Shown: positions 2,123 to 7,148 of the stretch, one piece after another
Layout: each line of letters opens with the position of its first letter
Numbering within the stretch: position 1 is the stretch's first letter
Virus record (IMG/VR): IMGVR_UViG_3300046004_000576
Coordinates: 1 to 30,595 of that record
From: a virus
Reading direction: 5' to 3' (one strand)
Length of the DNA: 30,595 bases
Made by a program: the position numbers and the translations under genes
The notes under the pieces: generated by a model
The model's database searches: none
What the model was told of the DNA's origin: nothing
What the model saw: the letters and a program-made list of their open reading frames with translations, nothing else

Positions 2123-2609
2123 GGTCTTTGGCAGCGATGATCTGCGCCAGCACGTCTGTGGATAACTTTGAGGCGTCGATTGTCTGCACTTGCAGCGGGT
2201 TTTCCTTGTCGCCTGCCAGCTCCAGCCTGTCGCCATACTTTTTCGGGGCCAGTTTGGAAAGCAGCCACTTGCGGCTGTCAACTTGCAGTTTGCGCTGCTG
2301 GATGGCCTGCCAGTCGCGCTTTCCGTCTCCAGTCTCAGGGACGTCGCTGTCGGCCAGCTCCAGCACCTCATTCGCCATGCGCTCGATCAGGTCTTCCCTC
2401 GCGTGCGCGTAGTCTTCCGCAAGTTTCGCGTCAGCATCCACCCACCTATTGAACGTGCTTTGCGGAACTCCTGCGGCTTGGCAAGCCTTGAAAGCGCTCA
2501 AGCCGTCTCTCATCCCTTGCAGGACGGATTGACAGATGGCGTCCTTGTCTCGCTCTGGCTTTGCTGGTTTCGCTGTTTTTTTGGGCTTTTCAGTGCGTTT
2601 CGTTGCCAT
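2103..2609 (-). CDS. terS: Terminase small subunit (DNA recognition)
   Basis: The 168-residue protein should bind the packaging site and hand DNA to TerL. It has a Lys-rich N terminus followed by a helix-turn-helix around residues 34-60 (GLSAFKACQAAGVPQSTFNR), a central helical region and a charged C-terminal segment. The ATG at 2609 has AGGA at good spacing; a GTG at 2624 would add five residues but has no ribosome site. It lies directly before terL with a 20-base overlap, and its start overlaps the end of the methyltransferase frame by 20 bases, which suggests translational coupling to that gene. Identification is by helix-turn-helix plus position. Confidence 0.88.
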   Translation of the reverse strand: MATKRTEKPKKTAKPAKPERDKDAICQSVLQGMRDGLSAFKACQAAGVPQSTFNRWVDADAKLAEDYAHAREDLIERMANEVLELADSDVPETGDGKRDWQAIQQRKLQVDSRKWLLSKLAPKKYGDRLELAGDKENPLQVQTIDASKLSTDVLAQIIAAKDHAADAS

Positions 2610-3515
2610 TTTTGAATCCTGCACTCAAGATGTTAAATGCTGTTGCAGCACACAGAGGGACTTGTCCGTTTCCAATGGCTTTAAGTCTGTCCACCCTAGC
2701 GGCCACCCCATCAGCCACTCGACCCACGTTGGGTTCAGTTTGCCACCATTCCCTGCGCCCATTTGTCTGGCTTCTTCGATTGTTGTGTTCTTGTTGAGCA
2801 AATCCCATGATCCACTGCCGCCACACATCCCCTTTGTTCTCGGTGTCGGCCAATGAACCTGCGTCCCCAAATTCGGTGATTTTCTGTTTCCCTGACTGGC
2901 TCCGCTGTCCTTCCAATCCCGTGAATTTGGACTTGCCCATTCCATTTGCTTTTTTTTCAGCGCTTTCCTGGAGTTGCTTCCTCCATCCAGTCCCGAGCAA
3001 TTCGGCGTGTGAAATGTTGTCTCTCCGTCTGGCGACAATCCAGATTCTGTCCCTCTGATGATTTGCTCCAACATCGGAAGCTCCCATAACAGCCCATCGA
3101 GTGTCATACCGTAGCGCGGTAAGGTCTGCAATAACTCTGGCTCCTCCCCTAGTAGTGAGCATTGGGCTATTTTCCACAAAGACGAATCTGGGTCGTATTT
3201 CGCTAACCAACCTCGCCATGTGCCTCCACATTCCGCTACGTTCTCCGTCAAGTCCTTTTCCTTTTCCTGCCGCTGAAATGTCTTGGCATGGAAATCCGCC
3301 AGATATGACGTCAACAATTCCTCGCCACGGGTTTCCATCAAAGGTTTGAACGTCATCCCATACTGGGAAAGGCGGGAGAATTCCGTCATTTTGTCTGGCG
3401 CACAATACGCTTGCTGCATATGGCTCCCATTCGACAGCACAGACTGTTCGCCATCCGAGCAGCCCCCCCCAAGTATTCCTCCACCAGCGCCTGCGAAAAG
3501 AGCCAACTCATTCAT
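2590..3515 (-). CDS. C5 cytosine DNA methyltransferase, requires a -1 frameshift at G8
   Basis: The 308-residue enzyme is readable only if the frame changes at the eight-G run at 3463-3470. Before it, from ATG 3515 (AAGG upstream), comes MNELALFAGAGGGILGGG, the SAM-binding motif I. After a -1 shift (equivalent to nine G) the frame continues LLGWRTVCAVEWEPYAASVL and then shows motif IV GGFPCQDIS with the catalytic Cys, motif VI FVENSP, motif VIII HQRDRIWIVA, and the C-terminal motif IX/X segment RVDRLKAIGNGQVP. It therefore looks like a complete family member transferring methyl groups to cytosine C5. It could protect phage DNA from host restriction. Its start overlaps the HNH gene by 8 bases. 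Alternatives are a phase-variable gene, a recent inactivating mutation, or a base missing in the assembly. Confidence 0.85.
2625..3515 (-). CDS. Overlapping frame sharing methyltransferase N terminus, function unknown
   Basis: Without any frameshift, the ATG at 3515 gives a 296-residue protein. It shares its first 18 residues (methyltransferase motif I) with the C5 methyltransferase, then runs through the same DNA in the other frame for about 840 bases. The frame is not random-looking: it contains LLTSYLADFHAKTF, KYDPDSSLWKIAQCSL, LDGGSNSRKALKKK, SPNSRDWKDSGA, HWPTPRTKG and LNPTWVEWLMGWPLGWTDL. From memory, WPTP, SRDWK and NPxWVEWLMGxPxGWT motifs recur in phage proteins annotated as cytosine methylases or as hypothetical. 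Whether this frame is translated is not shown. If the G run is really nine, the upstream 18 codons belong only to the methyltransferase and this protein would need an internal start. Confidence 0.5.
   Translation of the reverse strand: MNELALFAGAGGGILGGGCSDGEQSVLSNGSHMQQAYCAPDKMTEFSRLSQYGMTFKPLMETRGEELLTSYLADFHAKTFQRQEKEKDLTENVAECGGTWRGWLAKYDPDSSLWKIAQCSLLGEEPELLQTLPRYGMTLDGLLWELPMLEQIIRGTESGLSPDGETTFHTPNCSGLDGGSNSRKALKKKQMEWASPNSRDWKDSGASQGNRKSPNLGTQVHWPTPRTKGMCGGSGSWDLLNKNTTIEEARQMGAGNGGKLNPTWVEWLMGWPLGWTDLKPLETDKSLCVLQQHLTS
2950..2958 (-). promoter_or_regulatory. A8 run, A AAA AAG-type slippery sequence
   Basis: On the minus strand eight A are followed by G. In the zero frame of the overlapping protein the codons are AAA AAA AAG, which contains the classical bacterial slippery heptamer A AAA AAG. 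A -1 slip here would move ribosomes from the overlapping frame into the methyltransferase frame about two-thirds along. It may simply reflect the Lys-rich KALKKKQ segment. No stimulator was identified. Confidence 0.3.
3463..3482 (-). promoter_or_regulatory. Candidate -1 frameshift or slippage site: G8 run with upstream GGAGG
   Basis: On the minus strand the order is GGAGG (3482-3478), AATACTT, then eight G (3470-3463), then CTGCTC. The zero frame reads CTT GGG GGG GGC TGC. A -1 slip reads GGG GGG GGG CTG CTC and enters the methyltransferase frame exactly. The GGAGG lies 7 bases before the run, a spacing reminiscent of the internal Shine-Dalgarno stimulator of bacterial -1 frameshift sites such as dnaX. 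The GGAGG also encodes the Gly-rich motif I, so it may be coincidental. I see no convincing downstream hairpin. A long G run is also a classic replication-slippage and sequencing-error site. Confidence 0.5.
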
Positions 3516-4059
3516 AACCACCTTTCAGTCTGTTTTTGATGATGTGGTGTGCGCCACTTTTTGAGATATTCAAGAACAAAGCAACATCAGCAACAGACGC
3601 TCCGTCTGAAACCATTTTTTTGATCACATCAGCCATTGGATGCTTTGTTGGTTTTGTGCCACGCTTTTTGTGCCATGGTTTCTTGAAATTTTTTGGTCTC
3701 GCATATGTTCCATGCAGCTTTTTTTGCTGTTCGTTTTCTGAATGACTGACCCAAGCAAGATTCGATGGCGCGTTGTTTTGTGGATTTCCATCGAGATGTG
3801 ATGCCTCTTGTTTTTCCTCTGGCAGTCCATGAAACGCCATGCACACAAGCCGATGGACTGATGTTTTCACGCCACTTCCTGCTTGGCAATACTGGTAAGC
3901 GTTCGCCATCCACGGCTTGAGCTTCTTTCCCTTCAGCATAAAAAGACGCTCGACACCTTTGATGGTTTTTTTTACCTGCCGATCTTTCGACCAAATTTCC
4001 CCAAGACTATTCGCCATGTACCCTTGGGCAATGGGTATGTCTCGCCACTCGATTTCCAT
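3508..4059 (-). CDS. NUMOD4/HNH homing-type endonuclease
   Basis: The 183-residue protein starts with a NUMOD4-like segment (residues 4-23, WRDIPIAQGYMANSLGEIWS). It continues with an HNH core around residues 68-112, including VHRLVCMAF, SHLDGNPQNN and NLAWVSHSENEQQ, whose His and Asn residues form the metal-dependent nuclease site. The C terminus has a helix-turn-helix (about 150-175, GASVADVALFLNISKSGAHH) suited to DNA binding. Such enzymes cut a specific target and spread by gene conversion; some HNH proteins beside terminase also help packaging. The start has GAGG 5 bases upstream and lies about 20 bases below the predicted transcription start. Its stop overlaps the methyltransferase ATG (ATGAATGA). 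Base composition looks AT-richer than neighbours, suggesting a mobile insertion. Confidence 0.9.
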   Translation of the reverse strand: MEIEWRDIPIAQGYMANSLGEIWSKDRQVKKTIKGVERLFMLKGKKLKPWMANAYQYCQAGSGVKTSVHRLVCMAFHGLPEEKQEASHLDGNPQNNAPSNLAWVSHSENEQQKKLHGTYARPKNFKKPWHKKRGTKPTKHPMADVIKKMVSDGASVADVALFLNISKSGAHHIIKNRLKGGYE

Positions 4060-7055: not shown

Positions 7056-7148
7056 TTACCTCACATCATCGGTAGTCATCACGAAAGAATCAGCGGCAGG
7101 ACGGTGATGAGACGTCTTTTCGGGAGCTACCCTAGCCGTGATTGCCAC
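7056..7148 (-). CDS. Possible 30-residue ORF between Cro-like gene and initiator
   Basis: A GTG at 7148 with GAGG 8 bases upstream opens a 30-codon frame ending at a TAA just before the initiator start. The peptide begins MAITARVAPEKTSHHRPAAD. It bridges the only gap in an otherwise continuous operon, which slightly favours a real gene, but I recognise no family. Confidence 0.35.
   Translation of the reverse strand: MAITARVAPEKTSHHRPAADSFVMTTDDVR

What the first reader, a model, noticed from the sequence alone, without database searches (positions are those of the whole stretch)
2590..3515. C5 methyltransferase readable only through a -1 frameshift at a G8 run
Motif I (ALFAGAGGGILGG) lies in the frame starting at 3515, while motifs IV, VI, VIII and X lie in the -1 frame. 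The two join exactly at eight G (3470-3463); a -1 ribosomal slip or one extra G gives a complete 308-residue enzyme. GGAGG lies 7 bases upstream of the run. Options: programmed frameshifting, G-tract phase variation of a phage methylase, or a missing base in the assembly. The surrounding sequence is otherwise fully intact, so decay is unlikely.
Basis: partly seen in the sequence, partly recalled or inferred. Interest (0 to 1): 0.8.

Follow-up and report, generated by a model that had tools for sequence, protein, structure and literature searches.

The report
Phage methyltransferase genes in two frames
The odd eight-G run is probably just a one-base slip or sequencing error, but it exposed something better: this phage DNA-methylating enzyme appears to be written as two proteins in two overlapping reading frames of the same 900 bases, an arrangement conserved in many phages and bacteria and rarely annotated.

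Summary
The G8 run and frame offset are real in this sequence. Seven contigs of close relatives (L172, L174, L176, L004, L180, L183, L185) all carry nine G; in the four aligned base by base, one substitution and this one G are the only differences in the gene. With nine G the methylase is one normal ORF. Most of 113 viral relatives lack the run. G8 recurs once, in a distinct phage (L168). So there is no conserved programmed frameshift; a sporadic slip or assembly error is likeliest, phase variation is possible.

Frame A (+1) is open over nearly the whole gene in 112 of 113 relatives, starts with a conserved ATG 4 nt after the methylase ATG (Asn codon AAT 106/106, versus 45% elsewhere), avoids stops far beyond chance, and is the frame under amino-acid selection between motifs VIII and X. 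Frame B carries motifs I-VIII and X, joined by a predicted disordered linker; frame A carries the recognition-like segment and motif IX. Best reading: a two-subunit C5 methyltransferase of M.EcoHK31I type from two fully overlapping frames. If real, the lost base removes the catalytic subunit.

The parts
3513..3515 (-). ATG start of frame B (methylase, alpha-like)
   Evidence: Sequence; start of the intact ORF in L002 and most relatives
3509..3511 (-). ATG start of frame A, 4 nt downstream of the frame B ATG (ATGAATGAG)
   Evidence: Present in 106 of 108 viral relatives; the Asn codon that makes it is always AAT, against 45% AAT elsewhere; 45 of 45 in bacterial loci
3463..3470 (-). Run of eight G; nine G in seven close relatives; joins the frame B start to frame A in this sequence
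3031..3515 (-). Frame B catalytic half: motifs I-VIII of a C5-cytosine methyltransferase (one base short at the G run)
   Evidence: Pfam DNA_methylase and M.HhaI/M.HaeIII similarity end at motif VIII; codon-position pattern of frame B coding
2739..3030 (-). Region where frame A is the selected frame (target-recognition-like segment); frame B is open here but predicted disordered
   Evidence: Frame-neutral substitution rates .40/.18/.17 at B positions 1/2/3; AlphaFold pLDDT about 26-46 for B 191-280
2682..2738 (-). Frame A motif IX-like segment LNPTWVEWLMGWPLGWTDL
   Evidence: Invariant or nearly invariant in alignment A1; the L244 frame A segment aligns to phrog_363 257-311
2656..2688 (-). Frame B motif X (RLKAIGNGQVP)
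   Evidence: Sequence; followed by a confident AlphaFold helix, B 286-302; invariant columns in A2
2590..3468 (-). Frame B body (P0002), 292 codons to the stop, without its own start in this sequence
2625..3521 (-). ORF as it reads here: frame B start fused at G8 to frame A (P0001, 298 aa)
   Evidence: phrog_1008 E 5e-22

Best explanation
The locus encodes a two-subunit C5-cytosine DNA methyltransferase in two fully overlapping frames on one strand. Frame B (about 308 aa) supplies the SAM-binding and catalytic core (motifs I-VIII) and, after a disordered tether, motif X. Frame A (about 295 aa, starting 4 nt later, +1 frame) supplies the target-recognition-like segment and motif IX. Both would be started independently from the ATGAATGAG double start and assemble into one enzyme that methylates the phage's own DNA. 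Shown by sequence: both frames conserved and constrained, and the division of motifs between them. Inferred: translation of A, assembly, activity, protective role. The eight-G run here is a sporadic one-base loss (real or technical) in a tract that is nine G in close relatives; as written it leaves frame B without its start and puts the B start onto frame A.
For: Seven close relatives have G9 and one methylase frame; in the four aligned base by base, one substitution and the single G are the only differences over 2600-3600. In 113 unique viral loci frame A always lies at phase +1, and it spans nearly the whole gene in 112. Frame A stops: 1 in 69 sequences fetched by frame B alone, against 3.0 per sequence expected from synonymous shuffles; 0 in 11 sequences below 80% identity, against 2.9; the third frame is not depleted. 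Start Asn codon AAT 106/106 viral and 45/45 bacterial, against 45% and 41% elsewhere. Frame-neutral alignment of 600 pairs: B positions 1/2/3 differ .13/.06/.27 before motif VIII (B coding) and .40/.18/.17 between VIII and X (A coding). B matches M.HhaI only over motifs I-VIII; its model has a core, a disordered linker and a motif X helix. A is phrog_1008, the same family as the annotated C-terminal 'DNA methylase' genes of actinophages Lilbooboo gp33 and Datway gp75, which in turn match the segment following the catalytic domain in the single-chain family phrog_116. In Spirochaetia locus L244 frame B stops after motif VIII and frame A carries both IX and X. Bacterial loci: phase +1 in 73 of 74. 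Precedent: M.EcoHK31I, larger subunit I-VIII and X, smaller subunit IX (PMC3404938).
Against: No expression data. Frame A alone folds poorly in AlphaFold2 (mean pLDDT 53), so its fold and its identity as a recognition domain rest on homology. The cited paper places the predicted recognition domain of M.EcoHK31I in the larger subunit, unlike the reading here. Frame B stays open through the linker in about 97% of viral relatives although its residues there look unconstrained, which this model explains only as a need for the tether to motif X.
Confidence: 0.78

Rival explanations
1. Frame B alone is the whole methylase, and frame A is open only as a by-product of codon use.
For: Frame B has motifs I, IV, VI, VIII and X, and annotators call only this frame in most records checked.
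Against: Synonymous shuffles predict about 3 frame A stops per gene and almost none occur. Between motifs VIII and X the substitution pattern is that of frame A. The frame A ATG is fixed through a degenerate codon. Actinophage relatives carry this half as a separate annotated gene in frame A.
Confidence: 0.06
2. Frame A is a real but independent protein (for example a regulator or anti-restriction factor) that merely overlaps the methylase.
For: Frame A has its own start and family, and its first ~90 residues have no counterpart in known methylases.
Against: Its C-terminal half is homologous to the C-terminal halves of other phage methylases and carries motif IX, which frame B lacks.
Confidence: 0.13
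3. On the G run: it is a phase-variation switch; 9 G gives the catalytic subunit, 8 G turns it off (and fuses its start to frame A).
For: G9 is shared by close relatives and by several other lineages; G8 occurs twice independently, in the window and in L168. Poly-G tracts drive phase-variable methylases in some bacteria (own knowledge).
Against: Most relatives have no tract. No 10-12 G alleles were seen although the pattern allowed them. No read data.
Confidence: 0.2
4. On the G run: programmed -1 frameshifting at G8 makes the methylase from the frame A-fused message.
For: G8 is a plausible slippery run; GGAGG lies 7 nt upstream; the zero-frame product would be frame A, so one start could serve both proteins.
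Against: Only two contigs have G8; relatives read both frames without it. GGAGG is motif I coding sequence present in relatives without the run.
Confidence: 0.06
5. On the G run: assembly or sequencing error; the true sequence has nine G.
For: Longest G run in the window, and the only indel against L180, L185 and L004 over their aligned stretches around the gene.
Against: The same G8 appears in an unrelated contig, L168, so slips of this kind recur, though that too could be technical.
Confidence: 0.5

Closest known systems
M.EcoHK31I (and the isoschizomer M.EaeI), two-polypeptide C5 methyltransferase
   Same: Larger polypeptide with motifs I-VIII and X, smaller one with motif IX (PMC3404938); from memory, the smaller gene is nested in the larger in another frame and the larger protein is about 309 aa.
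   Different: Here frame A begins 4 nt after frame B and overlaps it along its whole length (about 295 codons; the known beta is, from memory, about 176). The target-recognition-like segment appears to be in frame A. Direct sequence relation to M.EcoHK31I was not tested.
M.AquI, two-polypeptide C5 methyltransferase
   Same: Enzyme split after motif VIII into a catalytic and a recognition/IX subunit (PMC3404938).
   Different: In M.AquI motif X is on the small subunit; here it is on the catalytic one (locus L244 resembles M.AquI).
Actinophage split methylases (phiBT1 gp9.1 region, Lilbooboo gp32/gp33, Datway gp76/gp75)
   Same: Catalytic half in one frame, C-terminal half in the +1 frame, phrog_1008.
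   Different: There frame B ends after motif VIII and frame A holds both IX and X; the annotated genes overlap by only about 20-30 nt.

Membership tests
C5-cytosine DNA methyltransferase | Motifs I, IV (PCQ), VI (ENS/ENV), VIII and X in one polypeptide | tested here: met
   Frame B in relatives; Pfam PF00145 E 5e-32, M.HhaI alignment, Foldseek to HhaI/HaeIII
C5-cytosine DNA methyltransferase (single-chain) | Target-recognition domain and motif IX in the same polypeptide | tested here: not met
   Frame B is predicted disordered between VIII and X and matches no solved structure there; motif IX-like segment is in frame A
M.EcoHK31I-type two-polypeptide C5 methyltransferase | Larger polypeptide with I-VIII and X, without IX | tested here: met
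M.EcoHK31I-type two-polypeptide C5 methyltransferase | Second polypeptide carrying motif IX | tested here: met
   By homology: LNPTWVEWLMG segment in A, and alignment of the L244 frame A to phrog_363
M.EcoHK31I-type two-polypeptide C5 methyltransferase | Second gene in another frame inside the first | tested here: met
   Phase +1 in all 113 viral loci and 73 of 74 bacterial loci; that M.EcoHK31I itself is so arranged is from memory
M.EcoHK31I-type two-polypeptide C5 methyltransferase | Both polypeptides needed for activity | not testable with these tools
   Needs expression
M.EcoHK31I-type two-polypeptide C5 methyltransferase | Sequence homology to M.EcoHK31I and specificity YGGCCR | not tested
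   The M.EcoHK31I paper was not held and its sequence was not compared
Programmed -1 frameshift gene | Slippery site and frame offset conserved in relatives | tested here: not met
   Relatives are in frame; the run is absent from most
Phase-variable methyltransferase | Variable tract length among close relatives or within a population | tested here: inconclusive
   8 against 9 between the window and relatives; no reads available

The most novel reading that the evidence does not exclude
A near-complete same-strand overlap of about 295 codons, conserved across phages and bacteria of several phyla, encodes both subunits of one enzyme, with a double start 4 nt apart and a change at motif VIII in which frame carries the amino-acid selection; and in G-tract lineages a one-base slip is used to turn the catalytic subunit off while keeping the recognition subunit in frame with the primary start.
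Probability: 0.15. Interest if true: 0.8.

Novelty: new variant of a known kind. Interest (0 to 1): 0.58.

Why it matters
Long same-strand dual coding is rare and usually hard to prove; here several independent sequence tests agree across a large family. Annotation calls only one frame in most records checked, so these phage enzymes look as if they had no recognition domain, and methylation predictions and some pseudogene calls may be wrong. It also gives a clean natural system for asking how two proteins of one complex evolve in the same DNA.

Tried and rejected
Programmed frameshift at G8: rejected because close relatives have G9 and most relatives no run. Frame A as chance ORF: rejected by stop, start-codon and substitution tests. 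Sequence match of frame A to solved structures: nothing significant, nor in Pfam. AlphaFold2 of frame A alone: too poor to search. A fused B/A model was not run because only a single sequence could have been supplied. A collection scan for exact copies of the window's G8 allele with its flank found none. The test for open frame B in the linker is biased because long B ORFs had been selected; the unbiased count is 3 interrupted linkers (L034, L041, L140) of 113. Bacterial loci were fetched with frame A, so their frame A openness is a weaker test than that of the viral loci fetched with frame B. Codon-position counts printed for the downstream gene were out of phase and are not used. Literature on this overlap in phages: none found among the papers held.

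Full report
Observation. The minus strand has an ATG at 3515, motif I, eight G at 3470-3463, and the remaining methylase motifs one frame back, to a stop at 2590. The -1 frame (frame B) is a C5-cytosine methyltransferase by Pfam and PHROGs. The zero frame after the run (frame A) is open for 298 codons and matches phrog_1008 at E 5e-22.

The G run. Four mutually identical IMG/VR contigs of a close relative (L002-L005) have nine G and an uninterrupted methylase; over 2600-3600 they differ from the window by one substitution and that G, while flanks differ by 2-20%. L180, L183 and L185 also have nine. A scan for 8-12 G at this site found 20 contigs: 19 with nine, and one, L168, a distinct phage, with eight and the same frame break. 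Most relatives code G-G-K or G-G-H here and have no run. The G8 state is thus sporadic. I cannot tell a real slip from a base error without reads.

Two coding frames. In 113 unique viral relatives frame A lies at phase +1 without exception, and its ORF runs from near the start to near the end of the methylase in 112 (L055 is shorter). Frame A begins with ATG 4 nt after the frame B ATG. That ATG depends on the Asn codon being AAT: 106 of 106, against 648 AAT and 787 AAC overall, and 45 of 45 in bacteria. Shuffling synonymous codons of frame B predicts about three frame A stops per sequence in the catalytic half; one was seen in 69 sequences fetched using frame B alone, none in 11 sequences under 80% identical. 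Frame C, the control, was not depleted. In 52 non-redundant bacterial loci 20 were seen, against 2.8 expected per sequence; 10 of the 73 phase +1 loci, such as Virgibacillus L254 and Oscillospiraceae L255 and L261, open frame A only later in the gene. Sequences are related, and the bacterial set was fetched with frame A, so these are not independent draws, but the direction is consistent.

Where each frame is selected. In a DNA alignment that favours neither frame, differences at B codon positions 1/2/3 are .13/.06/.27 up to motif VIII.40/.18/.17 between VIII and X, and .14/.06/.20 at motif X (600 pairs). The middle pattern is that of a gene read in frame A. For the pair L002/L006 the middle counts are 36, 9 and 6 of 100. 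Single wobble bases of frame B inside the catalytic half are also frozen where frame A is invariant (Pro118 CCA 106/106, residue 136 GGG 107/107).

What the frames make. Frame B aligns to M.HhaI and M.HaeIII over motifs I-VIII only. Its AlphaFold2 model has a confident core, very low confidence through the linker (about 195-283), and a confident helix 286-302 after motif X; Foldseek finds HhaI, HaeIII and DNMT1. Frame A is the same family as Lilbooboo gp33 and Datway gp75 (phrog_1008), which match phrog_116 just after the part matched by frame B. In those actinophages, and in Spirochaetia locus L244, frame B ends after motif VIII and frame A carries IX and X. So frame A supplies the C-terminal, recognition and motif IX part. 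The AlphaFold2 model of A alone is poor.

Interpretation. The closest described enzyme is M.EcoHK31I, whose larger subunit has I-VIII and X and whose smaller one has IX (PMC3404938). I recall that its smaller gene is nested in another frame; that paper was not held. The family here works like it and meets the anatomical features tested; need for both proteins and homology to M.EcoHK31I remain untested. In the window as written, the frame B start leads into frame A, the frame A start leads into a third frame that soon stops, and frame B lacks motif I unless a slip occurs. If real, this phage has lost the catalytic subunit.

Verdict. The frameshift is probably ordinary. The conserved full-length dual coding of the two halves of one enzyme is the result worth keeping: a new variant of a known kind, sparsely annotated.

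Noticed in passing
L168:1713-1735: A second, distinct viral contig with exactly eight G and the same frame break, while 19 other tract-bearing contigs have nine.
   Followed up: yes
L266:2500-3261: E. coli prophage copy annotated as a pseudogene with an internal stop; one site stops both frames, so it looks truly broken.
   Followed up: partly
L217, L239, L251 (bacterial); L034, L140 (viral): Frame B is interrupted while frame A is intact or nearly so, in most cases in the linker after motif VIII; these may work as catalytic half plus frame A, with motif X lost or reinitiated.
   Followed up: partly
L259:1478-4057: Frame A-like C-terminal segment with a motif X match in a separate ORF well downstream of the catalytic half; may show an unlinked arrangement.
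   Followed up: no
window 2600-3600: The methylase differs from L002-L005 by one substitution while flanking genes differ by 2-20%; recent exchange of the gene or strong dual constraint.
   Followed up: no
window 7076-7142 (-): Rfam int-alpA RNA just above the gathering score.
   Followed up: no
window 3508-4059 (-): HNH endonuclease gene directly upstream, overlapping the methylase start by a few bases.
   Followed up: no
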